Shown one piece after another: positions 14,194 through 57,471 of a DNA stretch of 64,000 bases. This DNA is from a virus. Where the stretch lies: positions 1-64,000 of IMG/VR virus record IMGVR_UViG_3300005096_000137, one strand, 5' to 3'. Under the pieces are notes generated by a model, which ran no database searches, was not told the DNA's origin, and saw only the letters and a program-made list of their open reading frames with translations. How positions within the stretch are numbered: the first letter of the stretch is position 1; every line of letters begins with the position of its first letter. The position numbers were made by a program, and so were the translations under genes.

Positions 14194-14197
14194 ACCA

Positions 14198-15088: not shown

Positions 15089-15090
15089 TC

Positions 15091-15981: not shown

Positions 15982-15995
15982 CAAGGAGAAGTCTA

Positions 15996-16913: not shown

Positions 16914-16915
16914 CT

Positions 16916-18007: not shown

Positions 18008-18008
18008 C

Positions 18009-28576: not shown

Positions 28577-29155
28577 ATGACGAAGAAGCTACCATTTGAT
28601 AGTGACTGGGTTGACGCATACTTTGACCATGGAATTGACGTGGAAAACCGACGGGTATTCATTGGTGATATTACCGATGAATCGGTGGGGTGCGCCATCA
28701 AGGGTCTTTATCTCATGGAGACCGCCTCCCGGGAAGAACCATGCGAGATGTTCATCTCCTCCTATGGGGGCTCCATCTATGACGCCTTGGCTCTCTATGA
28801 CGTCATGAACACCCTCACCTGTCCCATCCACACGTTTGCGTATGGGAAGTGCATGTCAGCGGCTCCGTTGCTCCTGGCGGCTGGTACAGTGGGTCAGAGG
28901 TGGGTCTCACCCCATGTTGCCTTCATGCACCATGACTGGGCCGACGATATTGCCGGCAAGGGGATGGAACTTCAAGCTGCCGTCAAGCACAGCGAAGACA
29001 TGGGGAAGACATGGACGAAACTGCTCGCCGAACACTCCACCAAGTCCTTCAAGTGGTGGGACGATCGAGGTAAAAGACCTGCGGACTTCTACTTCTCATC
29101 AGATGAGTCTCTCAAATGGGGACTCGCTGATGAAATCTGGGTTCAGAAACAATAA
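28577..29155 (+). CDS. clpP: ClpP-type serine protease
   Basis: 192 residues. It has the ClpP/crotonase fold signature: ISSYGGSIYDALALYD (60-75), AYGKCMSAAPLLLAAG with nucleophile Ser94, VAFMHHDW with catalytic His118 or His119, and PADFYFSSDES with likely Asp170. Cellular ClpP works with a Clp ATPase; phage relatives often cleave scaffold or capsid proteins. Here it lies after the tail genes, not next to portal and capsid, so a role in tail protein maturation or in host proteolysis is possible. AAAGGAAACTAGCC precedes the ATG. Confidence 0.85.
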   Translation: MTKKLPFDSDWVDAYFDHGIDVENRRVFIGDITDESVGCAIKGLYLMETASREEPCEMFISSYGGSIYDALALYDVMNTLTCPIHTFAYGKCMSAAPLLLAAGTVGQRWVSPHVAFMHHDWADDIAGKGMELQAAVKHSEDMGKTWTKLLAEHSTKSFKWWDDRGKRPADFYFSSDESLKWGLADEIWVQKQ

Positions 29156-29163
29156 GGTAAATC

Positions 29164-30807: not shown

Positions 30808-30827
30808 CCAATGGAATGATTCGACAC

Positions 30828-31343
30828 CTAAAATCTATCGATTAAATCCTCGATGGTGTATTCACTGTATGCCTTCATGTGAATCTGCATGTCGTTAGTT
30901 GTGATCCCTTTGTCACCTTTTTCCGCTAATTTAGCTGCCCACGCATCCAACTCATGTTTATTGGTGGAGGGTTCCTGTAAAAGCTCGCGGACAGTGGACC
31001 ACCATTGTGTATCTGGGTGAAGCAATTCAATATCGTAACCGTACCTCTCCATAAGGAACGCTGCAACTTTCCAGGTGGCTGGTTGAAGGTAGTTGTCCTG
31101 ATCAATGTAGATAGGAGTTGCACCAGCATCCGCTAAACGTTTCAAGGAGACCCACCACCAGTGTGTGCGTCTCCGTAACGCTCCTGAATCAAAACTATAT
31201 TCAGTGGGAGAATGAGGTGCATGGACTTGGTAGAAGAAGTTCTCCATGTGGAGGGCAACCCCTCCTGAGTCCTTGGCCTTCTGAGCAGCAAAGGTGGTCC
31301 TGCCACACCCAGGTATTCCTTGTATTAGATATGCAATACTCAT
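30828..31343 (-). CDS. P-loop NTPase, kinase-like, with Arg in Walker A
   Basis: 171 residues. The start carries a P-loop written G9-IPGC-G14-R15-T16-T17, in which arginine replaces the usual lysine. The layout (short P-loop at the extreme N-terminus, then DSGGVALHMENFF, later PIYIDQDN) resembles nucleoside or polynucleotide kinases of phages. The replaced lysine could reduce activity. It is the last gene of a leftward operon and overlaps the previous gene by 4 bases. Confidence 0.6.
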   Translation of the reverse strand: MSIAYLIQGIPGCGRTTFAAQKAKDSGGVALHMENFFYQVHAPHSPTEYSFDSGALRRRTHWWWVSLKRLADAGATPIYIDQDNYLQPATWKVAAFLMERYGYDIELLHPDTQWWSTVRELLQEPSTNKHELDAWAAKLAEKGDKGITTNDMQIHMKAYSEYTIEDLIDRF

Positions 31344-33705: not shown

Positions 33706-36513
33706 TTACTTCTTTGATCGCCGCCCCAGGGGTTTAAGCTTCAGACGCCCCTTGACAACCTCCAGGTATTGCCCAGTGGTCTTTGAATCAGCACTCCATG
33801 AGATATTGCCGACATAAGTACCACCCTTCCCTCCGGACTTGCCGGTAACAAAAGGACGAGGGAGGCGGAGGGAGAACTGCTTCTGGCTCCAGTACTCTTC
33901 GTCATCAGCCGAAAGGGTAACCCGAAAACGGTCATAGACTTCGCCAAACAAAACCTTTGCGCCGGGGCACTCGAAGGCAGTCTCCGTGAAGAACCGAGCG
34001 ATAGGATCCATCGTCAGGGCTTCAACGGCTTCCTTCTCGCGAGTTGCCATCACAGGGATCCGAAGTCGACCGGACGCTGGTGGTATGTCCCAGTCCATTA
34101 GTGTCCGCATGAAATGGGGAGCTTCAGCTTCAAGAGACTTCTTGAGGAGGCTCTTCGGAATCTCATCATCATAGTCAATCTCTGACACGTACAGCATGGT
34201 GACTCGGGTGTCCCCGTGCATGATGGGGCAATAGGACCGGTCATTGGCACAATGAACAAAGTGGAGACTGTTCCGGAGCATGTAGGTGTCCGTCCGCATC
34301 TGCCGAATGGCGATGTAATCGGATGTAATCCAATCCTTCATTCGGTTAAGAGCACGTTCCCCGTTCTTCCCATTTAGGTTGGTCTCTTCGACAACTGCAA
34401 GCACTGCATTTGCCAACTCCCCGTTGTGCTCGCCAGTTGTCTTTAGCGGGTTATCTGCTTTACAGTAACCCCCCGTGAACAACTGACGTGCTGCTTCGTG
34501 GAAGATGGATTTACCGGAATTCTCAGGACCATGCAGAAACAAGTAGGGCAGTGGCTCAAATGGCTCACGGAGCATGGCGGCGATCCAAAGCTGAAGGTAT
34601 TGGCGACCCGTCTTAACGTTGTACTTGTTCGCCCAGATATCGTCTACTAGAACCTCACCCAAGTCCTTTCCAATGTGGTCAAGAATCATATCCCAGTGGG
34701 GGTGGACTGGTTCCTCTTTGTCACCCAGGATTGCTGGGGCATAATTGAGCTGAGGGGCTTTGTGATTCCACTGCCGATTGCCTGGGAATTCAGGCTGGAA
34801 CGGCATGTTCACAAGCCGCCACCGTTTCTTCAAAATCGTACCCATGATGTGTTCAGCATCACCCTTGGCAACAAAGTCACTCTGGAGCATAAGCTTGATG
34901 TTGTTGGATGGGTGCATATCCCATTCCTTCTGGGAAGCATCCCAGGCTGCCCACCCTGCCTGGTCACCAGCCGTTGACATCAGGACGCGATACATCCCAT
35001 CGTACTCAGGATAATCCACGTTCTTCATCTCGCGGGGATCACACTCCACCTCAAACATCCGTTCCCAGAAAGTCTTATTCAGAATCCAGTGGTGGCTGGG
35101 CTTGGCGTCACTCTCGTGCTTTTCCACCCTTACCGATAATTCGTTGGACTTCAGCTCATGTTTTAGGATGACCTTCCGGTCCCCCTCAGCCCACTGCTTG
35201 ATATCATCCATCTGGGTTGCCTTGACCCCAAGTGCGGTCATTGCCTGCATGGCATGCCGAACACATGTAAAGTAAAAACTCCCATCCTTGGATTTGGCCG
35301 CCTGCATCGAGAGTGCAGCCGCCTTCAGATTTGGACGACAATTGAAGAATGTGGTTGTGTACCCACGTCCATCCTGGTCCCAGGTCTCATGCTCGTGATG
35401 ACCCTTACTGAATCGGTAAACCTTCCAACCGCCATCAGCCATTGGGAACGCGAAGGCATTTGGTTCGGCTAGATTGTTACCATCAGAGTTGGTCTCAAAG
35501 AACCCTGCGTACTTATCAGGATGTGTTTCCCTTAGTTGTGCGAACCCAGCCGTGTGCGTCTGCAACAGATTGTATTCGGGAATCCAGACAGTTGTACAGT
35601 TGCATTCCTCCGAAAGTGCCTCGATGATTTCATGATGGACTTCGTCCAGAGAAACCATATCCCGGGCGCTTGCCATCACATCGAAAGCTTCGTCTTCCTT
35701 GGTGGGGATACCCCGAACCTTGATCTTCGTTCGCTTTCGAGTCACCACATCAATGTGGTCACGCCAGTTGATTGGAAGATCACTAAGTGTTAATTCCTGA
35801 GTACTATCCTGGATAACCGCCAGCCCTTCATTCTGGGCAGTTGCATCACGATGCCAAATCCACATGTTTCCACCACAGGCATCAATAGCTGAGGCAAAGT
35901 TGAACCCGGACTCTTGGCTCATCTTGCTGAGGATACAACGACCCAGCCCTTGATGGATGGTGTGGTTCTCGGTAGGGATGCCAGCATCATCGAAGTACAC
36001 GTACATGTGGTAACCTTTACCGCGTGTACTCTTCCGGGTCTGAACCCAGGGGATCCGCATTGCTGCTTCCCGGACCTGCGAGAGCTGAACTTCATCGACT
36101 CCGACACCGGGTGCATGCCCAGTGATGGCATCAAAGTCAAATGCCACCCACCGTGAGACTCGGTGGCACCAGTCCCACCCTGTCATACCAACCGCTTCTG
36201 CGTTCATTGACAATGACCAAGGCAGCACCTTGTCCTCGAAATGGGGGAAGTCGGTCATGGCGTCGGCCGGGATGCGGATGTTCCAAAACTGGACACCGTC
36301 TTTGGTCCAAGTGTTTCGTCGCCCTTCGACTGCCTCAGCGCCACTGCCCGAGACGTTGACTTGAACTTCCATGTTGATTGAGAACCGCTCCAGCATATCT
36401 GGATTGTTCACCAGGGGCCGCTTCTGGCCTTTGGGCTCCATTGGGTTTCGTGGGAGGTTGCCAGCAGCAGCGGCGTCCAAGAATGATTTGATTACTTCGC
36501 GAGTCGTCTTCAT
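33706..36513 (-). CDS. Primase-helicase (AEP-like primase plus SF3/D5-like helicase)
   Basis: 935 residues from the ATG at 36513, chosen because AAAGGTC lies just upstream; an earlier in-frame start at 36612 lacks this. The N-terminal half has archaeo-eukaryotic-primase features: VAFDFDAITGH near residue 124 and TRKSTRGKGYHMYVYF near 165. The C-terminal half is an SF3/D5-like helicase: LHGPENSGKS near 661, VLAVVEE near 704, and FVHCANDRSYCPI near 750 as motif C. It would unwind and prime phage DNA. It is read away from the adjacent control region. Confidence 0.85.
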   Translation of the reverse strand: MKTTREVIKSFLDAAAAGNLPRNPMEPKGQKRPLVNNPDMLERFSINMEVQVNVSGSGAEAVEGRRNTWTKDGVQFWNIRIPADAMTDFPHFEDKVLPWSLSMNAEAVGMTGWDWCHRVSRWVAFDFDAITGHAPGVGVDEVQLSQVREAAMRIPWVQTRKSTRGKGYHMYVYFDDAGIPTENHTIHQGLGRCILSKMSQESGFNFASAIDACGGNMWIWHRDATAQNEGLAVIQDSTQELTLSDLPINWRDHIDVVTRKRTKIKVRGIPTKEDEAFDVMASARDMVSLDEVHHEIIEALSEECNCTTVWIPEYNLLQTHTAGFAQLRETHPDKYAGFFETNSDGNNLAEPNAFAFPMADGGWKVYRFSKGHHEHETWDQDGRGYTTTFFNCRPNLKAAALSMQAAKSKDGSFYFTCVRHAMQAMTALGVKATQMDDIKQWAEGDRKVILKHELKSNELSVRVEKHESDAKPSHHWILNKTFWERMFEVECDPREMKNVDYPEYDGMYRVLMSTAGDQAGWAAWDASQKEWDMHPSNNIKLMLQSDFVAKGDAEHIMGTILKKRWRLVNMPFQPEFPGNRQWNHKAPQLNYAPAILGDKEEPVHPHWDMILDHIGKDLGEVLVDDIWANKYNVKTGRQYLQLWIAAMLREPFEPLPYLFLHGPENSGKSIFHEAARQLFTGGYCKADNPLKTTGEHNGELANAVLAVVEETNLNGKNGERALNRMKDWITSDYIAIRQMRTDTYMLRNSLHFVHCANDRSYCPIMHGDTRVTMLYVSEIDYDDEIPKSLLKKSLEAEAPHFMRTLMDWDIPPASGRLRIPVMATREKEAVEALTMDPIARFFTETAFECPGAKVLFGEVYDRFRVTLSADDEEYWSQKQFSLRLPRPFVTGKSGGKGGTYVGNISWSADSKTTGQYLEVVKGRLKLKPLGRRSKK

Positions 36514-36957
36514 TTCTGACCTTTCGTGTTTAATCTTGTATGTCCCGAGTATACTTGAAATTGGACAACGAACTAGGGCAAAATGGAATAATCCTGACAA
36601 GGGTCGATCCAAAACCTATCGACCTTCCACTTAACCTGGGATTGGCATTGGAGTTACGTCAATTGTTAAGACTAATCCTCTTTTCTTACCTTATCCTCTA
36701 TATGAAGTTTTCTCTCTCTCTAAAAACATATAAGTACTAAGGGACCTAAGGGTATTGACCCTTTTTATTCGTAACCTGTTGATACGATTGAGGTTACGTG
36801 GGAAGGGATAGACCCTCGTGGACCCCATGATTAACTACCTCTTAAGGGTGCCAGTATAGATCGTAAGGGTTGTCCAGATTCCAATGGGTCATTATTTCAG
36901 AAACTTTCCACAAAATCGACAAAATCCCAATAATTCCAACCCGTTAGGTCGTGAGGC
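36514..36957. promoter_or_regulatory. Divergent control region with TAAGGG repeats
   Basis: About 440 bases separate the leftward primase-helicase from the rightward ParB-like gene. It is rich in A and T between 36660 and 36740. TAAGGG occurs at 36738, 36747, 36843 and 36864, and two ACAAAATC words lie near 36910. A TATACT lies on the minus strand near 36548. It could contain divergent promoters, ParB-type operators or an origin; the sequence does not decide. Confidence 0.5.
36748..36766 (+). terminator. Hairpin with T-run in the control region
   Basis: AAGGGT and ACCCTT pair over a 4-base loop and are followed by five T. The form is that of a small intrinsic terminator on the plus strand, but the position between divergent genes suggests attenuation or a protein site instead. 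Confidence 0.45.
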
Positions 36958-43374: not shown

Positions 43375-44030
43375 GTAAGGTCATGCTATTTTCACTGTTA
43401 TTCCGGAAACTACCCTCAGCCCCCACGTCAGCCCGGGCACTCTTGGCTGCTTCCATGTTGGATATCCCACCCACTGACTTACTGTTTGAGAAATACTGTG
43501 ATTTATTGATTCGTAAGCGTGGGCACACCCCTAACGCTGCCCAGTCCTTCAAAGAGCAGCACTCGGATAACGCTGACTTCATGCAACGGGTAACCCAGTC
43601 TGAACTAAACGAACTCCAACGTATCAAGCGGGTAAAAGATGACTATGTGAAGACTCAGCAAGCCGCTCGTCAAGCAGAACAGTTGGCGGCATACTCCCTC
43701 GCTCTGAAGAGGGGTGTGGGTTCCAAAGAAGCGGCTTGGTTCCGGGATTCCCATCGGGACGACCTTGACTTTCAGAAAGAGTGTGCTAGACTTGAGCATT
43801 GGGATGTCGAAAGAGTGCATGCCCTCCAGGTGGAGGCCCAGGTTATCGAGGACGCACAGAACCGACCCTTAATACTGGTGTATGCCACCCTCCTATACGA
43901 GCATGGCGCCCAGTCACAGAAAGTCCAGTACTTTCGCAACCAACACAAAGACAACGAAGCTTTCATGTTCCAGGCAGGAATACTTGAGGGGTTCAACGAC
44001 AACCCTGAAACAACACGGATAGGCGTCTGA
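43371..44030 (+). CDS. GSAF helical-repeat protein 3
   Basis: 219 residues with three repeats (YCDLLIRKRGHTPNAAQSF, YSLALKRGVGSKEAAWF, YATLLYEHGAQSQKVQYF), each followed by H-x-D-(N/D)-x-x-F. The last repeat of this protein is closest to the last repeat of the previous one, which suggests duplication of whole genes as well as repeats. Confidence 0.6.
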   Translation: MSKVMLFSLLFRKLPSAPTSARALLAASMLDIPPTDLLFEKYCDLLIRKRGHTPNAAQSFKEQHSDNADFMQRVTQSELNELQRIKRVKDDYVKTQQAARQAEQLAAYSLALKRGVGSKEAAWFRDSHRDDLDFQKECARLEHWDVERVHALQVEAQVIEDAQNRPLILVYATLLYEHGAQSQKVQYFRNQHKDNEAFMFQAGILEGFNDNPETTRIGV

Positions 44031-44638
44031 TGAACTGGAAAGCTGTAACCAGGTATGAAGGAATCTATGAGGTGAGTGAATGTGGTTGCGTTCGCTCGTT
44101 GGACCGGCAAATCTTCCCAAAGGCAGGCCCAACTTACTGGCTCAAAGGTGTGGTGCATAAACAATGTAAGAATCGGCGTGGTTATTTCAAGCTGAGTCTA
44201 TTCAAGAACAACAAAGAGAAGACCTTCGAGACCCACCGGTTGGTGATGATGGCGTTTGTTGGACCATGTCCTGAGGGTATGGAGATCCGACACCTGGACG
44301 GGACTCGGGACAACAACCATGTGGATAACCTGACATATGGGACATTGAGCGAGAACCAGCAGGACCGGAAGACACACGGCACAGCTTGCCTCGGAGAGAA
44401 CAGCCCAGTGAGTAAACTCACGGATGTACAATGCCATGAGATAGTTGACCAGTATGCCACTGGCAAGTATACTATGAGGGAAGTGGGCACCCAGTTTGGT
44501 GTGACTGCCGGTAACGTGTGTCGGGTTGTTAATGGACAGCGGGGTCTCGTTGATGGTACTCGTGTACCTGAGAAGAGAATTGCATTCAGACGGAGTGGGC
44601 AGAAAGGTGCCAACAATGGCCAAGTTAAATCGAGCTGA
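44030..44638 (+). CDS. HNH homing endonuclease with NUMOD4 domain
   Basis: 202 residues. NUMOD4 at the start (WKAVTRYEGIYEVSECGCVRSL), HNH core in the middle (ETHRLVMMAFVG, IRHLDGTRDNNHVDNLTYGT), and a C-terminal helix-turn-helix (SKLTDVQCHEIVDQY, MREVGTQFGVTAGNVCRVV). Free-standing enzymes of this kind cut DNA and spread themselves among phages. It is inserted between a repeat protein and the GGQ gene without breaking either. Confidence 0.85.
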   Translation: MNWKAVTRYEGIYEVSECGCVRSLDRQIFPKAGPTYWLKGVVHKQCKNRRGYFKLSLFKNNKEKTFETHRLVMMAFVGPCPEGMEIRHLDGTRDNNHVDNLTYGTLSENQQDRKTHGTACLGENSPVSKLTDVQCHEIVDQYATGKYTMREVGTQFGVTAGNVCRVVNGQRGLVDGTRVPEKRIAFRRSGQKGANNGQVKSS

Positions 44639-44990
44639 TGTCAAGTTTGACACCATGCGGGGATCCGGACCCGGTGGACAGCACAGAAATCGTACTGATT
44701 CGTGTGTACGTGCCACCCATAAGCCTACTGGTATCTCAGTCACAATTGACGGGAGAAGTCAGGGAAAGAACAAGGCACTTGCCCTCAAGGAGCTTCAGAA
44801 GCGTCTCGACGAACGGGAAAACGACGCCAAAGAGCAAGCCAAGAAAGCAACCAGAGACAAGCGTATCAAGGAAGAAAGAGTTATCAAGACCTACAGTTTT
44901 GTACGCGGAGTTGTGACGGATCATCGAACCGGCAAGGTCGCCTCCCTGAAAGATGTCCTTACTAAGGGTAAGATTGAGAAGCTACGATGA
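44616..44990 (+). CDS. Release-factor-like GGQ protein (RF-1 domain)
   Basis: 124 residues from ATG 44616, with AAAGGTG 6 bases before it. GSGPGGQHRNRTDSCVRATH holds the GGQ (residues 20-22) that triggers peptidyl-tRNA hydrolysis on the ribosome, and the THKPTGISV strand follows. The tail is a basic helix. It lacks the stop-codon-reading domain of RF1 and RF2, so it resembles ArfB/RF-like rescue factors. It may free stalled ribosomes or change termination. It overlaps the HNH gene by 23 bases. Confidence 0.8.
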   Translation: MAKLNRADVKFDTMRGSGPGGQHRNRTDSCVRATHKPTGISVTIDGRSQGKNKALALKELQKRLDERENDAKEQAKKATRDKRIKEERVIKTYSFVRGVVTDHRTGKVASLKDVLTKGKIEKLR

Positions 44991-45035: not shown

Positions 45036-45266
45036 TTGAGTGATAACCCTTCCGACCTGCTGTGGATTCGGACAGACGAGTTCAGTCCTCACTTGACAGT
45101 GGAGCAACTCCGGCGTACACTTGAGGGCTTAGACCCTAAAACACCTATCCTCATTGGAGTGCTTGGTGCCTTTGGGTTTATCGAAGACATAAGTATAGCT
45201 ACTCCCGCCCTAGGGGGTACCTACCCATCTGAGCCAACCCTTGTAATCTCTATGGACCAGCTATGA
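45036..45266 (+). CDS. ELxxxL array member 1
   Basis: 76 residues from TTG 45036, preceded by AAGGA. It has the array signature LTVEQLRRTLEGLDPKTPILIG followed by a short beta part (EPTLVISM). A reading frame of 18 codons (44987-45043) overlaps its start and may serve only to couple translation. Function unknown. Confidence 0.6.
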   Translation: MSDNPSDLLWIRTDEFSPHLTVEQLRRTLEGLDPKTPILIGVLGAFGFIEDISIATPALGGTYPSEPTLVISMDQL

Positions 45267-45505
45267 CCGAACCACCCTACGACTTATGGCAACAATGTCA
45301 CAGTCAGACACCCCGCTTGACTGTCGGAGTCCTTCAAGCTATACTAGAAGGTAAGGACCCAGAGATGCCCATTCGCGTAGGTCCAGAGGGTACCGAGGGA
45401 GACGTTGAGAACGTCTGCATTGATACTCCTGACCCTTTGTGGCCATATACCCGCGAACCCACAATCATGATTTCATGTCCCAGAACTTACCCGGATAGCT
45501 ACTAA
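45263..45505 (+). CDS. ELxxxL array member 2
   Basis: 80 residues. The core LTVGVLQAILEGKDPEMPIRVG is close to member 1, and the end is again a strand before a short tail (EPTIMISC). Start overlaps member 1 as ATGA, the clearest sign of tandem duplication at the left end of the array. Confidence 0.65.
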   Translation: MTEPPYDLWQQCHSQTPRLTVGVLQAILEGKDPEMPIRVGPEGTEGDVENVCIDTPDPLWPYTREPTIMISCPRTYPDSY

Positions 45506-45506
45506 A

Positions 45507-45788
45507 ATGAATACTGCTCAGAGAAACGAAACAGGTAACCTCATGTCACCCCTGGAAAATGTACCCATCTTCACAGATGCTGTGTGGCTGGGGTCCTCCT
45601 GTCTCCACGACAACCTGTACGAGGTCTTCCGAGTTACCACCACTCAAGAGGATCGACTCCGACTCAATGCCGGAGAACTCGTGGTTCTCAATCAGCGCCA
45701 GTACGTCCTCCAAGGGTCATTGTTATCGCCAGAGTCCTACAAGACTGATGACCTACTCTTTGTTCAAAACCTCGGAGTCCCATCCTAA
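45507..45788 (+). CDS. YxLFV-family small protein 1
   Basis: 93 residues from ATG 45507, or 81 from ATG 45543, which has AGGTAA before it. It has ELVVLNQRQYVLQGSLL and DDLLFVQ. The next gene and the N-terminal part of the gene at 49688 share this beta pattern (VLN or VND, then Y-x-(L/I), then LFV). Unknown function. Confidence 0.55.
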   Translation: MNTAQRNETGNLMSPLENVPIFTDAVWLGSSCLHDNLYEVFRVTTTQEDRLRLNAGELVVLNQRQYVLQGSLLSPESYKTDDLLFVQNLGVPS

Positions 45789-46048
45789 TGAATCAATCTT
45801 GGTGCGACCCCACCTCAACCCCATCTAAATTCACAGAGGCAGAATTCCTGTGCGAGATTGTGCTGGAGAGCAAGGTGTATTTGGTGTTCCAAGTCCTCTC
45901 AGGTCACGGCAGAATTCAAGGACTCCACCGCGAGACCGTCATCATTATCAATGATCGGAAGTACACCTTCAAGGACTCCCTTGACCTAGGTCCGACTAAG
46001 CCTGGGTCTTCCGACCATGAATACCAATTGTTTGTCCAGCCTGCTTAG
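45788..46048 (+). CDS. YxLFV-family small protein 2
   Basis: 86 residues. It has EIVLESKVYLVFQVLSG, then ETVIIINDRKYTFKDSLD and YQLFVQ, aligned with the previous protein. It starts as TAATG on the previous stop. Probably a tandem duplicate with the same unknown role. Confidence 0.6.
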   Translation: MNQSWCDPTSTPSKFTEAEFLCEIVLESKVYLVFQVLSGHGRIQGLHRETVIIINDRKYTFKDSLDLGPTKPGSSDHEYQLFVQPA

Positions 46049-46056
46049 GCCACATA

Positions 46057-46218
46057 ATGAAAGTCCACGAACTCCGTGCCCTACTCAACGACTGGGCTGA
46101 TGATGCTCTCATCGAAATTGTCGACGAATGCGGACAAATCCATTCAATCGCTGATGTGTACGAAGGGTATACACCTCAGGGTGTTACCCGGTACTTAATC
46201 GATATGGATCCACAATGA
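46057..46218 (+). CDS. ELxxxL array member 3
   Basis: 53 residues: KVHELRALLNDWADDALIEI at the start, a turn with DECG, and a strand near the end (TRYLIDM). The stop overlaps the next start as ATGA. Too short for most gene finders, but the motif and overlap support it. Confidence 0.6.
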   Translation: MKVHELRALLNDWADDALIEIVDECGQIHSIADVYEGYTPQGVTRYLIDMDPQ

Positions 46219-46625
46219 CTGACTACACCCCTGTACAATACGAACTGGTCTGGGACAACCCCAACTATGAACCTGTGTCTGTGGACACCTTGCAGGCTGC
46301 CCTGAGCACATGTGACCCCAGTTCTCTGGTTGGCTTTGACGCAGGGGGTAACTACGCCTCAATCATCCAGAACATCTACACCATAAAAGATGTGGTGGTT
46401 ATCGAGCCACTACTCCTGTACACCGACCAGTGTGCCTGGGCCAAGGAATGCTCTCGCCTTTGGACCAACGAGGTTCGGAAGGTTCTGACTGTTGACGAGC
46501 TTCAAGGGTTGCTGAGCCTGTATCCCTACAACAATCAAGTGTCCACAAACCCCAACGATAGCAATGGTCGCCCAATGGGGATTTACCAGCGTCCAGGTTT
46601 CACTTTCATTAAGGTGGTTCGATGA
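46215..46625 (+). CDS. ELxxxL array member 4, double module
   Basis: 136 residues with two copies of the array motif: VSVDTLQAALSTCDPSSLVGF near residue 21 and LTVDELQGLLSLYPYNNQV near residue 90. It looks like a fusion of two array units. ATGA overlaps at both ends. Confidence 0.6.
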   Translation: MTDYTPVQYELVWDNPNYEPVSVDTLQAALSTCDPSSLVGFDAGGNYASIIQNIYTIKDVVVIEPLLLYTDQCAWAKECSRLWTNEVRKVLTVDELQGLLSLYPYNNQVSTNPNDSNGRPMGIYQRPGFTFIKVVR

Positions 46626-46816
46626 CAGTCATTTGGCACGAGGACGAGGATACTGAGATTTGGGGTGGTCTCACGGTGGGCGAACTCCAAGGGCTCCTAC
46701 ATGGTCGCCCCTCCAATACCATTGTCCGTATTGGGTTTGAGGGTACTAAATACCCTGTCACCCTGGTTGATGAAGAGTCAGCAGGGTCTATCACATTGGA
46801 AAGGTTCGACGCTTGA
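46622..46816 (+). CDS. ELxxxL array member 5
   Basis: 64 residues. An acidic start leads into LTVGELQGLLHGRPSNTIVRIG and a final strand (SITLERF). The stop overlaps the TTG start of the next gene. Confidence 0.6.
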   Translation: MTVIWHEDEDTEIWGGLTVGELQGLLHGRPSNTIVRIGFEGTKYPVTLVDEESAGSITLERFDA

Positions 46817-46974
46817 ACATCCGCGAATTGCGAAAAGTCCTAGACACATTCGACGATTTGGACGCCATCCAGGTTTATGACCGCAATGGCTGTTTGGTTG
46901 ATATTACGGAGCACTACCAAGATCGGGAGCCAGATGGTTCCAGGACTTGTGTGCTCATACCAGGCGGTAACTAA
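46813..46974 (+). CDS. ELxxxL array member 6 (TTG start)
   Basis: 53 residues from TTG 46813: NIRELRKVLDTFDDLDAIQVYD, then TCVLIPGGN at the end. The start lies in TTGA over the previous stop. A RBS-like AGGCGG near its own end could serve the next unit. Confidence 0.55.
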   Translation: MNIRELRKVLDTFDDLDAIQVYDRNGCLVDITEHYQDREPDGSRTCVLIPGGN

Positions 46975-47163
46975 CGACACCCCTCTGGGCGGCGATAACA
47001 CCAGGAACCCAACTTACGGTGGGTGGGCTCAGGGGAAATCCTTGAGTATGCTAAGGACGACGAGGTTGTGGAGATTCTCTATGAGACCCACGCACGTCGC
47101 GATGTGCTCAATGTTACACGAGAACCCAAGACAGGAAAGCTTGTTTTGGAGGCACATGACTGA
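46974..47163 (+). pseudogene. ELxxxL array member 7, frameshifted, no ATG
   Basis: In place of the usual TAATG the junction reads TAACG (46972-46976), so the start would be ACG 46974. The frame reads TPGTQLTVGGLR; after a G4 run (47032-47035) it must move by one base to read EILEYAKDDEVVEILYETH and end at the TGA of 47161. Joined, the two parts match the array motif exactly. Either the gene is dead, or the start and the G-run are sequence errors. A GTG at 47023 could start the second part alone. Confidence 0.45.
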
Positions 47164-47303
47164 TGAGTGCCTCTGAAAACACCAACCGTTTCTGGGTCAA
47201 GATTATAGTAATAAGTGCCACCAGGTGGGCAATGGACGTAACGTCTCAACAACCAACCAGTGGGCTCGCCGTAAGGTCAACCGAAAACGCCGCAAACATC
47301 TAG
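47163..47303 (+). CDS. Possible small protein, uncertain frame
   Basis: 46 residues from an ATG overlapping the previous TGA as ATGA. The content (SENTNRFWVKIIVIS) is plausible only at the start. The frame one base back, from about 47190, reads a better protein that continues into the next entry, so another indel near 47192 is possible. Confidence 0.25.
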   Translation: MSASENTNRFWVKIIVISATRWAMDVTSQQPTSGLAVRSTENAANI

Positions 47304-47509
47304 CCGATGATTTGGAAGCACAACTCAGGGAGGAAGAGAATGAAGAACGTGGAACACACCGGTCAATTCACCGTGCATGGACAGAACAGTGTGAAGTGCA
47401 TCGGCCTGGGGAACAACCGGAAATCCTCAGTCATCAACGCAAAGGTAAGGCAGGACTCGAACACAAAGAGACGGCAGTATCTCAAGAAAGACCTGGAGAA
47501 GCAAATTGA
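47225..47509 (+). CDS. Basic small protein, uncertain
   Basis: 94 residues from GTG 47225. The first 45 are convincing (NQWARRKVNRKRRKHLADDLEAQL), basic then acidic, and could bind nucleic acid. The later part overlaps another gene in a different frame and is less natural. The true 5' end may lie in the previous entry through an indel. Confidence 0.35.
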   Translation: MGNGRNVSTTNQWARRKVNRKRRKHLADDLEAQLREEENEERGTHRSIHRAWTEQCEVHRPGEQPEILSHQRKGKAGLEHKETAVSQERPGEAN

Positions 47510-47546
47510 CGATACGCCGGTAGAAACGCCGGTAGAAACCAGGTGA
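47340..47546 (+). CDS. Small basic protein
   Basis: 68 residues from ATG 47340, with GGGAGGA 4 to 11 bases upstream. It has FTVHGQNSVKCIGLGNN and ends in a Lys-rich helix and two PVET units. No family is recognised. Confidence 0.5.
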   Translation: MKNVEHTGQFTVHGQNSVKCIGLGNNRKSSVINAKVRQDSNTKRRQYLKKDLEKQIDDTPVETPVETR

Positions 47547-47563
47547 TGAAGAGGGGCAGCTAG

Positions 47564-47768
47564 ATGAACATTGGTGAATTGAAACAGATGATTGATGGGC
47601 TCCCCAATGACATGCCCTTGATTGTCGTGAATGATAACTATGCGTTCGGTTGTATCGAAGATGTTGGTGTGGACCTCCCCAATTGGGGGAAATGTTGTGG
47701 CAATTGACGTTTTGCATTTGGACGATATTTACCTGGAGACCCCACTTGATGATACGACTCTACTATGA
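47564..47768 (+). pseudogene. ELxxxL array member 8, frameshifted
   Basis: From ATG 47564 the frame reads NIGELKQMIDGLPNDMPLIVVND and then FGCIEDVGVDLPNWG, but stops early at 47705. Skipping one base in the G5 run (47685-47689) lets it continue VVAIDVLHLDDIYLETP to a TGA at 47766. As written, the intact product has 47 residues. A single-base insertion, natural or technical, is the simplest reading. Confidence 0.6.
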
Positions 47769-48306
47769 CACTTCGGCTCAGCGAACCATTGCGGTGAAAG
47801 GTTCTCACCGACTCAAGATTCGCGATACCTCGCCAAGGTGTTACCCCGTGGTTGCTGAATACTTAAAGTGTCTGAGTGCCCACCTCGATAAAGTTGTGGT
47901 TTCCCCACTGGATCACTTTGCCCCTCAAGGTTTGAATCTCCCGGCACATGGGCAATGTGACCCCTGGGATGCTGTTGGTCGGGTGGGATATACACTTGAG
48001 CGACTACAGCGATTGCAACGGGACCCCAAGATGTGTCTGAGTTGGTGGGAAGGAGATTCCGATGCCTGCAAATCTTACTTCCACCTACTACAGGGTAGCC
48101 TCCTAAGATTTGACCCCGAGGAGAAACATCGGGCCCAGTGCATCGGTGGTCCCTATGCAGGAGATGTTCACGGAATACGGATTGCCGATCATCGACATGT
48201 ACTTGACTGCAATCACGACATCCCGGCGTGTGTTTATGAGGGTCGTTCGGTTGACGGCAACACCCCCGAGAAGATTTACTTCGTCCGTGAAATAAACTCA
48301 CGCTGA
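47749..48306 (+). CDS. Hypothetical protein
   Basis: 185 residues from ATG 47749, with CTGGAG upstream. It contains WDAVGRVGYTLERLQRL, LSWWEGDSDACKSYFHLL and a His/Asp-rich C-terminal half (VHGIRIADHRHVLDCNHD). The histidines might bind metal. It overlaps the end of the corrected frame of the previous gene. No family is recognised. Confidence 0.6.
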   Translation: MIRLYYDTSAQRTIAVKGSHRLKIRDTSPRCYPVVAEYLKCLSAHLDKVVVSPLDHFAPQGLNLPAHGQCDPWDAVGRVGYTLERLQRLQRDPKMCLSWWEGDSDACKSYFHLLQGSLLRFDPEEKHRAQCIGGPYAGDVHGIRIADHRHVLDCNHDIPACVYEGRSVDGNTPEKIYFVREINSR

Positions 48307-48357
48307 CGCCTATTTTGAGAATTCCACTTGACCAATCACGTTTTGGAGGTATACTTA

Positions 48358-48519
48358 ATGCAGAAGACACTTGGAGACTTGAAGCGGGACTTGGCAAAGA
48401 TATCGGAGAAGTTCTCGGATAATGCCCTGGTGGAACTACTGTGTCCCGAGGATAAGTCAGTGGGTCACTTGACCGACGTATTTGAACAATTCGGAATCAT
48501 CTTCCTGGAATCAAAATGA
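48358..48519 (+). CDS. ELxxxL array member 9
   Basis: 53 residues from ATG 48358, with TTGGAGG 9 bases before it; a TTG at 48328 in frame is less likely. It has LGDLKRDLAKISEKFSDNALVEL and ends VFEQFGIIFLE. The stop overlaps the next start as ATGA. Confidence 0.6.
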   Translation: MQKTLGDLKRDLAKISEKFSDNALVELLCPEDKSVGHLTDVFEQFGIIFLESK

Positions 48520-48992
48520 GTGACACCCCGTACATCAGTGGATTCGAGTTTAACAACACACCAGAGCAAGCCCGCGAATTGGTAGCTCAAGCACTGGAGT
48601 CTGGGGACTATGTGCAGGGTTATGGGTACCTCGAACTTCAAGTAGACGGGGGTTGCACAAACTGTTGCCTCGGGGTGGCATGTCGGGAATTTATCAAACA
48701 CGAGAACGATGTCCACGCTATACCGGCTGAGTTGTTTCATGATGGGACAACATCCTTTGATGGGGAACGGAGTAAACTCCCGTACTATATCCAGGGGTGG
48801 TTGGGCTTTAATGATTCGAGTGGCTCCTATGACGGGGGCTGCCTAACAGAAGACAACGACGGGGATCTAACCCCCAATCCCGTTAAACGTAGTGAGGACC
48901 ATGCACGTGAAGCTTGGCTGTATTCTGGTGATAAGACGTTTACTGGAATCGCCAACCTATTCCGTAACCCACCAAAGGGACTGCTGGAATGA
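48516..48992 (+). CDS. CCLGV-family protein 1
   Basis: 158 residues. It starts TPEQARELVAQALESG, then CTNCCLGVACREF near residue 48, a LPYYIQGWLGF segment and CLTEDNDGD, ending FTGIANLFRN. I recall phage proteins with this order (helix, CCLGV, W-G, ND, FxxIAxxI) of unknown function. The Cys pair may bind metal. Confidence 0.65.
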   Translation: MSDTPYISGFEFNNTPEQARELVAQALESGDYVQGYGYLELQVDGGCTNCCLGVACREFIKHENDVHAIPAELFHDGTTSFDGERSKLPYYIQGWLGFNDSSGSYDGGCLTEDNDGDLTPNPVKRSEDHAREAWLYSGDKTFTGIANLFRNPPKGLLE

Positions 48993-49426
48993 TCAACACA
49001 CCAGAGCAAGCCCGAGAATTGGTTGCCCAAGCCCTGGAGTCGGGTGAGTACACTCAGGGTTATGGTCAGTTGGAACGAAACACACCTGAAGGTTGTACGA
49101 ACTGCTGCCTTGGTGTAGCATGTCGGCAATTTGAAAAGCACGAAGGTACTGTCTACGCATACAGGGAAGAGGACGACGCCAATACATGTTTTGAGAAGGA
49201 AGTAACCAAGCTCCCATATCGCGTGCAGCAATGGTTGGGTTTTTCAAACGCTAGCGGTGGTTATGACACAGGTTACCTAACTGAAGACAATGATGGCGAT
49301 GTCGTCAGGAACCCGGACAAGGGTCTCAAGTTGGACGAGAATAACCAACTTGTGTATGCCGGCGGTAAGTCATTCACTGAAATTGCCGAACTCTTCCGTA
49401 ACCCTCCCGAAGGATTACTCGAATGA
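48989..49426 (+). CDS. CCLGV-family protein 2
   Basis: 145 residues, a tandem copy of the previous protein: TPEQARELVAQALESGEYTQGYG, CTNCCLGVACRQF, LPYRVQQWLGF, LTEDNDGD, FTEIAELFRNPPEGLLE. The first 45 bases of coding sequence are almost the same in both genes. ATGA overlaps on both sides. Confidence 0.65.
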   Translation: MINTPEQARELVAQALESGEYTQGYGQLERNTPEGCTNCCLGVACRQFEKHEGTVYAYREEDDANTCFEKEVTKLPYRVQQWLGFSNASGGYDTGYLTEDNDGDVVRNPDKGLKLDENNQLVYAGGKSFTEIAELFRNPPEGLLE

Positions 49427-49695
49427 GACGACCCAGAGTATGTGATATAACGATCCAGGTCCTAAAGGACACAGGGAACGAAGCGGTCATGTACGGCGAC
49501 GAAGGTCTCATGCACTTGATTGCCATGGAACTCCACTGGAAGATTCCCAGTGATATCCCAGGCTGGGACAAACTGTATCAGCGTCTCCTGAACGCCCTCA
49601 CAAAGACACCAGGTGATTTGATACACAAGTTCACACAAAATGGGCGTGGACGGTTGGTGCGGATATTCCGTTTACCGGAGGAAGACAGTGCTTGA
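49423..49695 (+). CDS. Small hypothetical protein
   Basis: 90 residues, mixed helix and strand (ITIQVLKDTGNEAVMYG, LMHLIAMELHWKIP, LYQRLLNALTKTP). It overlaps its neighbours at both ends (4 and 8 bases). No family is recognised. Confidence 0.55.
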   Translation: MRRPRVCDITIQVLKDTGNEAVMYGDEGLMHLIAMELHWKIPSDIPGWDKLYQRLLNALTKTPGDLIHKFTQNGRGRLVRIFRLPEEDSA

Positions 49696-50311
49696 ATTCA
49701 AAGGCAAAGCGTATCGACCCGAGTGTCCCTTCCACATGTGTGGCGAGGATACTTCACTGTTCAAGGTTCAGATTACAGCGGAACCACCCTGGGTGTTGGT
49801 GAGTGGCGACCCCGTCATGGTCAATGATTACCAATACACCATCATCGATTGGCTACCCATCGACCGGTCAAAGAACGAATACTATCTCTTCGTGAGCGGT
49901 GAGAGTTTTCTGCAATTCGCTCAGAAGTATGTGGACGGGTATCTGAATGCTGAGCTACCCTGTCTGAATACAGTCATGGACTGGATGACAGATGCACCAG
50001 TTGATTATTACACCTACGAGTGTGAAGTGGATGACAGGGTTGCAAACTGGGAGGTACTAATGGAGGACACTCTCCGCTTTTCACTCAGGGAGCTGATGCA
50101 GGATTTGATTGCGTATCATCGCCAGATTGTGTTCGCCTGCACAAATCCTCGCAGCGATGGGGCATACCGACTCCGGCTGACCTGTGACTTACCAATTGCG
50201 TACAGTGTTCGTCCCACCGACGAACCGCATGTGTACGACCACATTATTGAAGTTGCCATCGTGGCAGACCCAGGTAAGAAATGCTCACGACCAGACTGGA
50301 TCGCGGAATGA
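49688..50311 (+). CDS. Two-domain hypothetical protein (YxLFV plus PIxY domains)
   Basis: 207 residues from GTG 49688, preceded by GGAGGAAGA. The N-terminal part (VMVNDYQYTIIDWLP, EYYLFVSG) is related to the genes at 45507 and 45788. The C-terminal part (LPIAYSVRP, DHIIEVAIV) is related to the ends of the genes at 52228 and 53332. It thus links two small families. Role unknown. Confidence 0.55.
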   Translation: MLEFKGKAYRPECPFHMCGEDTSLFKVQITAEPPWVLVSGDPVMVNDYQYTIIDWLPIDRSKNEYYLFVSGESFLQFAQKYVDGYLNAELPCLNTVMDWMTDAPVDYYTYECEVDDRVANWEVLMEDTLRFSLRELMQDLIAYHRQIVFACTNPRSDGAYRLRLTCDLPIAYSVRPTDEPHVYDHIIEVAIVADPGKKCSRPDWIAE

Positions 50312-50454
50312 ACGTCTTTGATTTACGAGACATAGTACAGGCAGCCATTGACAGCGGTCAAGGGCTCGCCGAGGTTACCATGTGGGTCAACGGTAGAGAC
50401 AGCCCTATCATGAGTACTGACCTAACTGAGGGTGAGTTGAGTCTCGAAGAATAA
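50308..50454 (+). CDS. ELxxxL array member 10
   Basis: 48 residues: NVFDLRDIVQAAIDSGQGLAEVTMWVNG and an acidic end (GELSLEE). It overlaps the previous stop as ATGA. The next gene is a close copy at base level. Confidence 0.6.
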   Translation: MNVFDLRDIVQAAIDSGQGLAEVTMWVNGRDSPIMSTDLTEGELSLEE

Positions 50455-50469
50455 TGATTGGAGCGCAGA

Positions 50470-50616
50470 ATGAACGTCTTTGCTTTACGAGACCGGTTAC
50501 AGGCAGCCATTGACAGCGGTCATGGAGACTGTGAGGTTATAATGTCTGTTCCAGGTGATGAAATACCGGCTAGGGACACTGAAATCATAGATGGTGAATT
50601 CGTCATCGAAGACTGA
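50470..50616 (+). CDS. ELxxxL array member 11
   Basis: 48 residues: NVFALRDRLQAAIDSGHGDCEVIMSVPG, ending DGEFVIED. GGAGCGCAG precedes the ATG. Offset from member 10 is 162 bases with long identical stretches, so the copy is recent. Confidence 0.65.
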   Translation: MNVFALRDRLQAAIDSGHGDCEVIMSVPGDEIPARDTEIIDGEFVIED

Positions 50617-50628
50617 GGTTAGGAATAC

Positions 50629-50777
50629 ATGACGTTAAACGAATTGCTGACTGTGGTGGGAGATGCTGTTGCCGTCCTGGATGAAACCACCAGCTCAAAG
50701 ACCTGGAGGGCCCGTACATAACGGACGTCACCCAGGGTGCCAGCGAATGTATTATCTTTGTTGACGACGTTTATTAG
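50629..50777 (+). pseudogene. ELxxxL array member 12, frameshifted
   Basis: From ATG 50629 it reads TLNELLTVVGDAVAVLDETTSSK and stops at 50721. One extra base near the AAA run at 50697-50699 would let it go on as DLEGPYITDV and ECIIFVDDVY to the TAG at 50775. That end fits the family. As written only 30 residues are made. Confidence 0.5.
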
Positions 50778-50786
50778 GAGTGAACC

Positions 50787-50945
50787 ATGATTGTAGACGA
50801 ATTGATTGCTCATCTTGAGCGACTGTCGGACGATGGTTTCGGACGCCATGAAGCTCAGGTCGAGGGACATGTCGGCGAACTCAGTGACATTGAGAGCGTC
50901 GAAGTTTGCGATGATGAAGTATTCATTATCACTGACCACTTGTAA
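50787..50945 (+). CDS. ELxxxL array member 13
   Basis: 52 residues: IVDELIAHLERLSDDGFGRHEAQV, then SDIESVEVCDDEVFII at the end. TAGGAG precedes the ATG. The DDEVFII ending is close to members 11 and 15. Confidence 0.65.
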   Translation: MIVDELIAHLERLSDDGFGRHEAQVEGHVGELSDIESVEVCDDEVFIITDHL

Positions 50946-50955
50946 GGAGAGACGA

Positions 50956-51138
50956 ATGACACAGAAGATTGTACTGGGCCAACTGATTGAGAAGTTACAG
51001 AAACTCGCTGAGGATGGTCACCAGTACACACCAGTCCACGTGCAGGATGGTTCGTCCGGTATAAAAGTCATCACCGGTATTGCTGTTGCTGATGACTACG
51101 AAAACGTGGAAATCCTTACTGAGTATCCGGAGGATTGA
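50956..51138 (+). CDS. ELxxxL array member 14
   Basis: 60 residues: IVLGQLIEKLQKLAEDGHQYTPV, then GIAVADDYENVEILTE. AAGGAGAG precedes the ATG. It is close to member 16 in the G-x-L-(I/V)-EKLQ-x-L part. Confidence 0.65.
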   Translation: MTQKIVLGQLIEKLQKLAEDGHQYTPVHVQDGSSGIKVITGIAVADDYENVEILTEYPED

Positions 51139-51140
51139 GA

Positions 51141-51317
51141 ATGAGACTTGGACAATTACTTGCTCAGGTGAAGGAAGCAGTTGACGCCGGGCACGGGCAC
51201 ATGGACGTCATACTCTGGTGCAACGGAGCTACGATACCTGCTGATCGCACTGACATTTGTGACGGTGAATTCATCATCGACGTATATCCAAAGGTGACGA
51301 CATGCCCCGACAAATGA
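51141..51317 (+). CDS. ELxxxL array member 15
   Basis: 58 residues from ATG 51141 (GGAGGA 8 bases upstream): RLGQLLAQVKEAVDAGHGHMDVILW, then DGEFIIDVYP. It overlaps the next gene by 16 bases. Confidence 0.65.
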   Translation: MRLGQLLAQVKEAVDAGHGHMDVILWCNGATIPADRTDICDGEFIIDVYPKVTTCPDK

Positions 51318-51487
51318 TACTCGGCGAACTGGTCGAGAAGTTACAGGCACTCGTGGCTGCGGGTCACGGGTACACACCCGTTCAGGCTGTGAGTCGGCTG
51401 ACGGAGATGGTAGTTGTGGATGTTGCAGCCGACGATGAGGACGAATACGTGAATCTCTATGTTGAACCTCAAGGAGTAGGCAAATGA
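51302..51487 (+). CDS. ELxxxL array member 16
   Basis: 61 residues: MILGELVEKLQALVAAGHGYTPV, then VDVAADDEDEYVNLYVEP. AAGGTGACGAC precedes the ATG. The stop overlaps the next start as ATGA. Confidence 0.65.
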   Translation: MPRQMILGELVEKLQALVAAGHGYTPVQAVSRLTEMVVVDVAADDEDEYVNLYVEPQGVGK

Positions 51488-51630
51488 AAGTTAGTGAACT
51501 GATCCAACTGTTGATGAAGTATCCAGCGAGTGATGACGTGGAGTTTCTGGTCCCGGGGGACGACCCCTGGCCTATCGAAACGGTCACAGCAGATAGTCCC
51601 GGGGTGACATACATCATTGCCGATGATTAA
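51484..51630 (+). CDS. ELxxxL array member 17
   Basis: 48 residues: KVSELIQLLMKYPASDDVEFLVPG, ending VTYIIADD. This is the plainest form of the family: helix, acidic turn, two strands. Confidence 0.7.
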   Translation: MKVSELIQLLMKYPASDDVEFLVPGDDPWPIETVTADSPGVTYIIADD

Positions 51631-51631
51631 G

Positions 51632-51673
51632 GAGTAAACCATGATTGTTTCTGAATTGATTGAGAAGTTGCAG
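51632..51673 (+). repeat. 42-base exact direct repeat, copy 1
   Basis: Covers the ribosome site, ATG and first codons of array member 18; the same 42 bases return at 51802-51843 at the head of member 19. Confidence 0.9.
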
Positions 51674-51814
51674 ATAGTAGCCAGTCATGGTTATGCTGAC
51701 TCTGATGTGCGGGACCTTGTGACGGACAACTTGATGTTGGAGGTTGTGGTGGTGGCTGGCAGTTTGTATCTTATCGCGGGGGTACCTGAGGTGAACGAGG
51801 AGAGTAAACCATGA
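51641..51814 (+). CDS. ELxxxL array member 18
   Basis: 57 residues: IVSELIEKLQIVASHGYADSDV, then LEVVVVAGSLYLIAG. The first 32 coding bases are identical to those of member 19. The stop overlaps the next start as ATGA. Confidence 0.65.
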   Translation: MIVSELIEKLQIVASHGYADSDVRDLVTDNLMLEVVVVAGSLYLIAGVPEVNEESKP

Positions 51815-51843
51815 TTGTTTCTGAATTGATTGAGAAGTTGCAG
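51802..51843 (+). repeat. 42-base exact direct repeat, copy 2
   Basis: Identical to 51632-51673, including the region before the ATG, marking a recent duplication of one array unit. Confidence 0.9.
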
Positions 51844-51969
51844 GAGGCTGACGCGAATAACGAGGTTGACATTGAATTACCAGGTGGTGTGGAACTTGAT
51901 GTTTCAGGAATTCACTTCTACCTCTACCGTGTAGCCATCCAAACCACAACGAAGCATAAGACATACTGA
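51811..51969 (+). CDS. ELxxxL array member 19
   Basis: 52 residues: IVSELIEKLQEADANNEVDIELPG, then LDVSGIHFYLYRVAI. It ends the array 6 bases before tRNA-Ala. Confidence 0.65.
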   Translation: MIVSELIEKLQEADANNEVDIELPGGVELDVSGIHFYLYRVAIQTTTKHKTY

Positions 51970-57271: not shown

Positions 57272-57300
57272 TTGACTGTCAACGAATTCAAGGTTATACT
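57272..57300 (+). promoter_or_regulatory. Sigma70-type promoter
   Basis: TTGACT and TATACT are separated by 17 bases, near consensus. Transcription would start near 57307 and cover a structured leader, tRNA-Pro and the secreted-protein gene. Confidence 0.75.
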
Positions 57301-57306
57301 AGAAGC

Positions 57307-57471
57307 TCACGGCTTAAAGGTGTTGTCTGAGAAATGACACGCGCCCGCAACGTGCGGGTGCCATTTTATGAATCAGGACTTAAAGTGCCGCGATGGTGGC
57401 ACTCCACCAGAATAAACCTGGTGGTGTCACGTGGACCCAGGTTGTCGTGCATCGCATCGTGGGTCCGCTAC
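57307..57471 (+). ncRNA. Structured leader or small RNA
   Basis: Three stable hairpins follow the promoter: CCCGC/GCGGG (57344-57358), CCACCAG/CTGGTGG (57404-57424) and GGACCCA/TGGGTCC (57433-57466). No convincing reading frame is present. It may be a separate small RNA or a processed leader of tRNA-Pro. Confidence 0.5.

What the first reader, a model, noticed from the sequence alone, without database searches (positions are those of the whole stretch)
45036..51969. Tandem array of about 18 tiny paralogous genes (ELxxxL family)
From 45036 to 51969 about 18-19 very short genes (mostly 48-80 codons) share one plan: M, a strand, (E/D/Q)L-x-x-x-L helix, an acidic or Gly turn, a V-x-(V/I) strand, and a strand at the end. 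Most overlap by ATGA or TAATG. Pairs such as 50308/50470 and 51641/51811 are nearly identical at base level at their 5' ends, so the array is still expanding. I know single genes of this type in other phages, always without a function; an expansion on this scale is new to me. Repeated copies would fit proteins that each meet a different partner, such as inhibitors of host defence or dose-driven antagonists.
Basis: partly seen in the sequence, partly recalled or inferred. Interest (0 to 1): 0.92.

Follow-up and report, generated by a model that had tools for sequence, protein, structure and literature searches.

The report
Tandem array of tiny phage genes
An uncultured phage carries about sixteen tiny related genes of a widespread but functionally unknown phage family side by side, twice as many as in any other virus examined here, and part of the array follows a copy of the phage's own putative early promoter, so these may be a toolkit against host proteins or defences.

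Summary
The array is real but the count needs trimming. Between 45036 and 51969 about 16 of roughly 26 genes belong to one family: 7 in a left block (45036-47707) and 9 in a right run (50308-51969). One more is frame-broken. The other genes in the span belong to different families.

The family is a known, functionally blank phage family (MTVxELIxxLxxxPxDxxV; PHROG 5861/7217/18091-like). It occurs elsewhere in tandem sets of 2-6; the highest count per record found was 8, in a 424-kb virus. G000 has the largest set seen here. The array is absent from the closest relative (104 kb, primase 61% identical), which keeps the flanking genes.

Three new facts:
- 24.6% of this phage's genes lie in tandem-paralogue groups, against 0-9.6% in ten relatives, so the array is the extreme case of a genome-wide habit.
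- A copy of the phage's repeated TTGAC-N17-TATACT promoter, otherwise clustered at 139-147 kb, lies at 48314-48355, at the head of the right block.
- All 15 intact single-domain members are acidic (pI 4.1-4.7).

Similarity sits mostly in the N-terminal helix; bodies diverge, and two neighbours share an identical 42-nt 5' end on different bodies. Best guess: early, diversified inhibitors of host or defence proteins. Function is untested.

The parts
45036..45266 (+). family member m01, 76 aa, N-terminal extension then LTVEQLRRTLEG
   Evidence: LOO 0/1000 shuffles; pair with m02 E 8e-13
45263..45505 (+). family member m02, 80 aa
   Evidence: LOO 0/1000
45507..46048 (+). p03/p04, a paralogous pair of another family (not members)
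   Evidence: pair E 1e-4; no match to the family profile
46057..46218 (+). family member m05, 53 aa
   Evidence: LOO 2/1000 to left group, 0/1000 to all; subgroup m05/m08 hhalign 91%
46215..46625 (+). m06, 136 aa; second half is a family domain, first half not shown
   Evidence: m06b 0/1000, m06a 5/1000
46622..46816 (+). family member m07, 64 aa
   Evidence: LOO 0/1000; phrog_4110 E 0.0011
46813..46974 (+). family member m08, 53 aa
   Evidence: outside HMM 1/2000 shuffles
47564..47707 (+). family member m10, 47 aa, perhaps truncated by a frame break after a run of five G
   Evidence: outside HMM 0/2000; continuing frame to 47768
48314..48355 (+). promoter-like copy TTTGAGAATTCCACTTGACC-N16-TATACT of the class repeated at 139-147 kb
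   Evidence: 17 exact copies of TTGAC-N17-TATACT in the genome against 0.3 in random genomes over all spacings
48358..48519 (+). m11, 53 aa, looks alike but does not join the family
   Evidence: 104-224/1000 shuffles as good
48516..49426 (+). q12/q13, tandem pair of another family
   Evidence: pair E 5e-56, 62% identity; no family match
49423..50311 (+). x14, x15, other genes
   Evidence: no family match
50308..50454 (+). family member m16, 48 aa
   Evidence: LOO 0/1000
50470..50616 (+). family member m17, 48 aa; AF2 model helix 3-18 then four strands, pLDDT 84.5
   Evidence: LOO 0/1000
50629..50776 (+). m18, probable dead copy: stop after 30 codons, remainder in another frame
   Evidence: does not join by score
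50787..50945 (+). family member m19, 52 aa
   Evidence: LOO 0/1000
50956..51138 (+). family member m20, 60 aa
   Evidence: LOO 0/1000; outside HMM 0/2000
51141..51317 (+). family member m21, 58 aa
   Evidence: LOO 0/1000
51302..51487 (+). family member m22, 61 aa
   Evidence: LOO 0/1000
51484..51630 (+). family member m23, 48 aa; AF2 model pLDDT 88
   Evidence: outside HMM E 1.4e-6, 0/2000
51641..51814 (+). family member m24, 57 aa
   Evidence: LOO 0/1000; outside HMM 1/2000
51811..51969 (+). family member m25, 52 aa; first 33 coding nt and 9 upstream nt identical to m24
   Evidence: outside HMM E 2.7e-6, 0/2000

Best explanation
An accessory, lineage-specific array in a large tailed phage. 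A widespread family of very small acidic phage proteins (N-terminal helix followed by a strand region) has been multiplied to about sixteen copies by tandem duplication, divergence, loss and exchange of 5' ends. Shown by computation: membership, tandem layout, absence from the nearest relative, birth and death of copies, and genome-wide excess of tandem paralogues. Inferred: the right block is made early in infection from the promoter copy at 48314-48355. Each protein keeps the same helix core but presents a different body, so the set acts as a collection of inhibitors, each binding a different host or defence protein, much as SPO1's takeover module or T4's small anti-toxin proteins do.
For: Family: leave-one-out and outside-profile tests. 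Other viruses have tandem sets of the same family. Accessory: G013 has the genes on both sides but 1.2 kb in place of 15 kb. Duplication. Constraint: dN below dS in every pair where dS could be estimated. Promoter copy of the 139-147 kb class. All 15 intact single-domain members have pI 4.1-4.7, charge per residue -0.130 against 0.005 for other small ORFs. Precedent for copy-number gain of a small phage inhibitor: T4 tifA (PMC9391042); SPO1 takeover cluster of 26 genes (PMC6873191).
Against: No member or relative has a known function; no match in Pfam above cut-off, NCBIfam or PADLOC, none in the PDB by sequence or fold. The early class of the promoters is inferred from clustering alone. The promoter's predicted start falls inside ORF 48358. 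The left block has no such promoter. Acidity is common among phage proteins, and the control set includes some spurious ORFs. Diversified targets are not shown.
Confidence: 0.45

Rival explanations
1. The array is a by-product. This phage has a recombination system or replication mode prone to tandem duplication, many copies are near-neutral, and only one or two ancestral members matter.
For: 24.6% of its genes are in tandem paralogue groups, including structural genes at 12377-20218; one copy is broken and another perhaps truncated.
Against: Most copies keep an open frame, an RBS and dN below dS over saturated synonymous divergence; old neutral copies would be lost. Genome size limits punish idle DNA.
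Confidence: 0.25
2. The members act together as one assembly: strand-rich small proteins that form a mixed oligomer or scaffold, the copies being subunits rather than separate inhibitors.
For: One helix core throughout, neighbouring translation with many -4 overlaps; AF2 models are small and low in pTM, 0.40 and 0.59, as for chains that need a partner.
Against: Bodies differ beyond detection, unusual for co-assembling subunits; other viruses manage with 2-8 copies.
Confidence: 0.15
3. Dose-driven antagonist: many copies serve to raise the amount of one activity, as in T4 tifA amplification.
For: T4 tifA precedent; identical 5' end with RBS reused at 51641/51811.
Against: Copies are about 20-50% identical in protein sequence; dosage needs like copies, not this divergence.
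Confidence: 0.1

Closest known systems
PHROG 5861 / 7217 / 18091 / 6161 / 22847 (small phage proteins, unknown function)
   Same: MTVxELIxxL start, 46-72 aa, body with strands; phage hosts
   Different: Outside relatives match these at E 1e-7 to 1e-2, G000 members only at E 0.1 to 0.001; 2-8 copies per record in the tandem-bearing records tested, about 16 here
Tandem sets of the same family in IMG/VR viruses (L096 5 copies, L114/G047 6 in 2.7 kb and 8 in all, L119/G050 4-5)
   Same: Same family, side by side; L113 and L114 even carry both linker types (PxD and GFG) next to each other
   Different: Fewer copies; other viruses, no shared flanking genes tested
SPO1 host-takeover module (26 small genes, PMC6873191)
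   Same: Run of very small accessory genes, presumed host-directed
   Different: SPO1 genes are largely not paralogues of one another (only 3 tandem pairs in 50 kb by the same pipeline)
T4 tifA and its amplification (PMC9391042)
   Same: Small phage inhibitor whose tandem copy number rises
   Different: Segmental copies under laboratory selection; here diverged copies; no sequence relation tested
Pfam DUF6225 (PF19735)
   Same: Weak N-terminal match (E 0.08)
   Different: Half the curated cut-off score; not a member by that test

Membership tests
Phage small-protein family MTVxELIxxLxxxPxDxxV (PHROG 5861 group) | Profile match to outside members with no G000 sequence in the profile | tested here: met
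   m10, m20, m23, m25 0/2000 shuffles, m08 and m24 1/2000; all five subgroups above 40/40 shuffled profiles, hhalign 38-91%
Phage small-protein family MTVxELIxxLxxxPxDxxV (PHROG 5861 group) | Similarity beyond the N-terminal helix | tested here: inconclusive
   Only m08 clearly matches with residues 1-12 removed; within the late run m16, m17, m19, m21, m22 do, m20, m23, m24, m25 do not
Phage small-protein family MTVxELIxxLxxxPxDxxV (PHROG 5861 group) | Match to a PHROG profile | tested here: inconclusive
   Best E 0.0011 (m07, phrog_4110) and 0.0036 (m10, phrog_7217)
DUF6225 (PF19735) | Score above Pfam gathering cut-off 26.5 | tested here: not met
   13.4 bits at best
Host-takeover / counter-defence module | Early expression | not testable with these tools
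   Only a promoter of the 139-147 kb class at 48314-48355
Host-takeover / counter-defence module | Demonstrated effect on host or defence protein | not testable with these tools
   none; no PADLOC, PDB or named-family match
Host-takeover / counter-defence module | Accessory, absent from close relatives | tested here: met
   G013 lacks it at the same place; no late-type member in ten relatives

The most novel reading that the evidence does not exclude
The array is a modular repertoire: a constant 5' cassette (RBS plus start of the helix) is copied onto divergent bodies by recombination, so that the phage builds new small binders against changing host defences much as a multigene family does in larger pathogens. 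The 42-nt identical 5' end of two neighbours with different bodies is the trace of one such exchange.
Probability: 0.25. Interest if true: 0.82.

Novelty: new variant of a known kind. Interest (0 to 1): 0.56.

Why it matters
The family is widespread in phages and has no known function. A phage with about sixteen members, several of them behind a promoter copy of a recognisable class, is the natural place to find what the family does: members can be cloned one by one and as a block and set against defence systems. The genome-wide excess of tandem paralogues also makes this phage a case for how phages grow accessory genes.

Tried and rejected
Nucleotide search for the phage or the array in 50,697 phage records: no match. 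tblastn of single members 50470 and 51302: nothing at E 1. Array protein patterns in IMG/VR: none confirmed; DNA patterns of paired starts worked instead. In genome contigs only a few of 97 pattern hits hold family members. Two loci with repeated pattern hits (L104, L110) hold no family member. Fold searches of both models: no significant match. First hhalign script timed out. Promoter-like sites inside m01 and m02 (45093, 45317) coincide with the LTVxxL..ILE codons and were not counted as promoters. Assembly artefact rejected: copies differ too much.

Full report
WHAT THE WINDOW IS. The window is the first 64 kb of a 148,427-base virus record (G000). It is a tailed phage: tape measure protein at 7539-11405, primase at 33706-36612 on the minus strand, ParB-like protein at 36958. 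Elsewhere it encodes DNA polymerase A, a ribonucleotide reductase, Ro60/TROVE, RtcB and RNA ligase. It has no nucleotide relative among 50,697 phage records; cultured phages match only distantly by protein. A primase alignment found 27 related IMG/VR records. The closest is G013 (L029): 104 kb, primase 61% identical, about 54 shared genes.

THE OBSERVATION. I translated 25 candidate genes between 45036 and 51969; the span also holds at least one larger gene ending at 48306. Leave-one-out profiles with 1000 shuffles per gene gave two groups. The late group holds 50308, 50470, 50787, 50956, 51141, 51302, 51641 and 51811. The left group holds 45036, 45263, 46622, 46813, 47564, the second half of 46215, and more weakly 46057. 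The gene 51484 lies in the late run but scores with the left group.

OUTSIDE EVIDENCE. A DNA pattern for two successive starts of the form M-x-V-x-E-L found 37 stretches in IMG/VR. Most of those read contain tandem small genes starting MTVxELIxxL. A profile of 42 such proteins, none from G000, recognises 51484 (E 1.4e-6) and 51811 (E 2.7e-6), also 50956 and 47564 (0/2000 shuffles each), with 46813 and 51641 at 1/2000. In profile-profile tests all five G000 subgroups scored above 40 of 40 column-shuffled controls, while the neighbour pairs 45507/45788 and 48516/48989 did not. Two outside loci (L113, L114) carry a PxD-type and a GFG-type gene next to each other, which links the two linker types seen in G000. 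The supported count is 16 members plus one broken copy at 50629.

A LIMIT. With the first 12 residues removed, only 46813 still matches the outside profile clearly. Within the late run 50308, 50470, 50787, 51141 and 51302 still match one another, whereas 50956, 51484, 51641 and 51811 do not. The family rests chiefly on its N-terminal helix and the first strand. AlphaFold models of 50470 (pLDDT 84.5, pTM 0.40) and 51484 (pLDDT 88, pTM 0.59) show a helix followed by strands, with no match in the PDB and only insignificant ones among viral models.

HOW THE ARRAY GREW. 50308/50470 share 81% over 90 nt, 50972/51318 share 76% over 67 nt, and 51632/51802 are identical over 42 nt including the ribosome-binding site. 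Over the whole pair 51641/51811 synonymous change is near saturation (dS 3.5), so an identical 42-nt start is best read as a later exchange and not as the remains of a whole-gene duplication. dN is below dS in every pair where dS could be estimated. One copy is broken. I read this as birth, divergence, death and exchange. The same habit runs through the genome: 61 of 248 genes (24.6%) have a tandem paralogue within 4 kb, against 0-9.6% in ten relatives and 4.7% and 7.1% in the first 50 kb of T4 and SPO1. The gene caller is crude but the same for all.

ACCESSORY PLACE. G013 has the genes that flank the region in G000 (40252 and 55986) about 1.2 kb apart, where G000 has about 15 kb. No late-type member was found in ten relatives. 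The region also holds an HNH endonuclease (NUMOD4) and an RF-1 domain protein just upstream and tRNA genes on both sides.

EXPRESSION. The sequence TTTGAGAATTCCACTTGACC-N16-TATACT at 48314-48355 belongs to a class repeated in front of nearly every gene at 139-147 kb. TTGAC-N17-TATACT occurs 17 times exactly in the genome; random genomes of the same dinucleotide make-up give 0.3 for all four spacings together. The predicted start of transcription lies inside ORF 48358, which is not a family member, so the promoter would serve 48516 onwards. That the 139-147 kb block is early is inferred from its layout only.

NATURE OF THE PROTEINS. All 15 intact single-domain members have pI 4.1-4.7. Mean net charge per residue is -0.130, against 0.005 for 71 other small ORFs (some of which may be spurious) and -0.097 for the outside family. 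No function is known for any relative: not in Pfam above cut-off, NCBIfam, PADLOC, PDB or PHROGs. Cultured phages with a likely single relative include Caulobacter phage Cr30 (gp056, MKVAELIERLKLFDQDLEV) and Rhizobium phage RHph_N38.

MECHANISM AND COMPARISON. Small, acidic, accessory, fast-changing, multiplied and probably early proteins fit a set of inhibitors of host or defence proteins. The working analogues are the SPO1 takeover cluster (PMC6873191) and T4 TifA, whose gene is amplified in tandem under defence pressure (PMC9391042). Neither is shown to be related in sequence. Neutral by-product, mixed oligomer and dosage remain as rivals. Copy number elsewhere was 2-8 per record in 24 records tested, which were chosen because they carry tandem copies, so the array is the largest found here but of a known kind.

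Noticed in passing
G000 139090-147070 (L007/L008): About fifteen near-identical promoters (TTGAC-N17-TATACT, upstream GAGAATTCCA, downstream TTCAAGTGTTCAAGCAAC), about one per small gene: a candidate early region.
   Followed up: partly
12377-20218: Five tandem paralogues followed by three more (tail-fibre-like), largely shared with G013: old tandem duplication among structural genes.
   Followed up: partly
44526-44990: Stand-alone RF-1 (GGQ) domain protein, 154 aa, in the accessory region next to an HNH/NUMOD4 endonuclease (44030-44638).
   Followed up: partly
48516-49426: Tandem pair of 145-158 aa proteins (62% identical, phrog_18067-like) with a conserved CTNCCLGVACR motif, inside the array.
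   Followed up: no
47564-47768: Family gene whose frame breaks after a run of five G; the continuing frame ends at 47768, overlapping the next start. Assembly error, decay or frameshifting cannot be told apart.
   Followed up: partly
57272-57338: LTVNEFKVILEAHGLKVLSEK-stop between a tRNA-like end and a terminator-like hairpin: a promoter-like site or a remnant of a left-type family gene; the same DNA fits both.
   Followed up: partly
45093-45121 and 45317-45345: Promoter-like hexamers coincide with the LTVxxLxxxLE codons of m01 and m02.
   Followed up: no
L114 (record G047, 424 kb): Large virus with eight copies of the same family, five of them at 61.6-64.4 kb, both linker types present.
   Followed up: partly
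G000 76166-77740 and 135656-137191: Ro60 (TROVE plus vWA) and RtcB homologues, with an RNA ligase at 106629: RNA repair set.
   Followed up: no
L044-L049 (G013) about 28771-31218: The nearest relative has its own trio of tandem paralogues at the place where G000 has the array.
   Followed up: no
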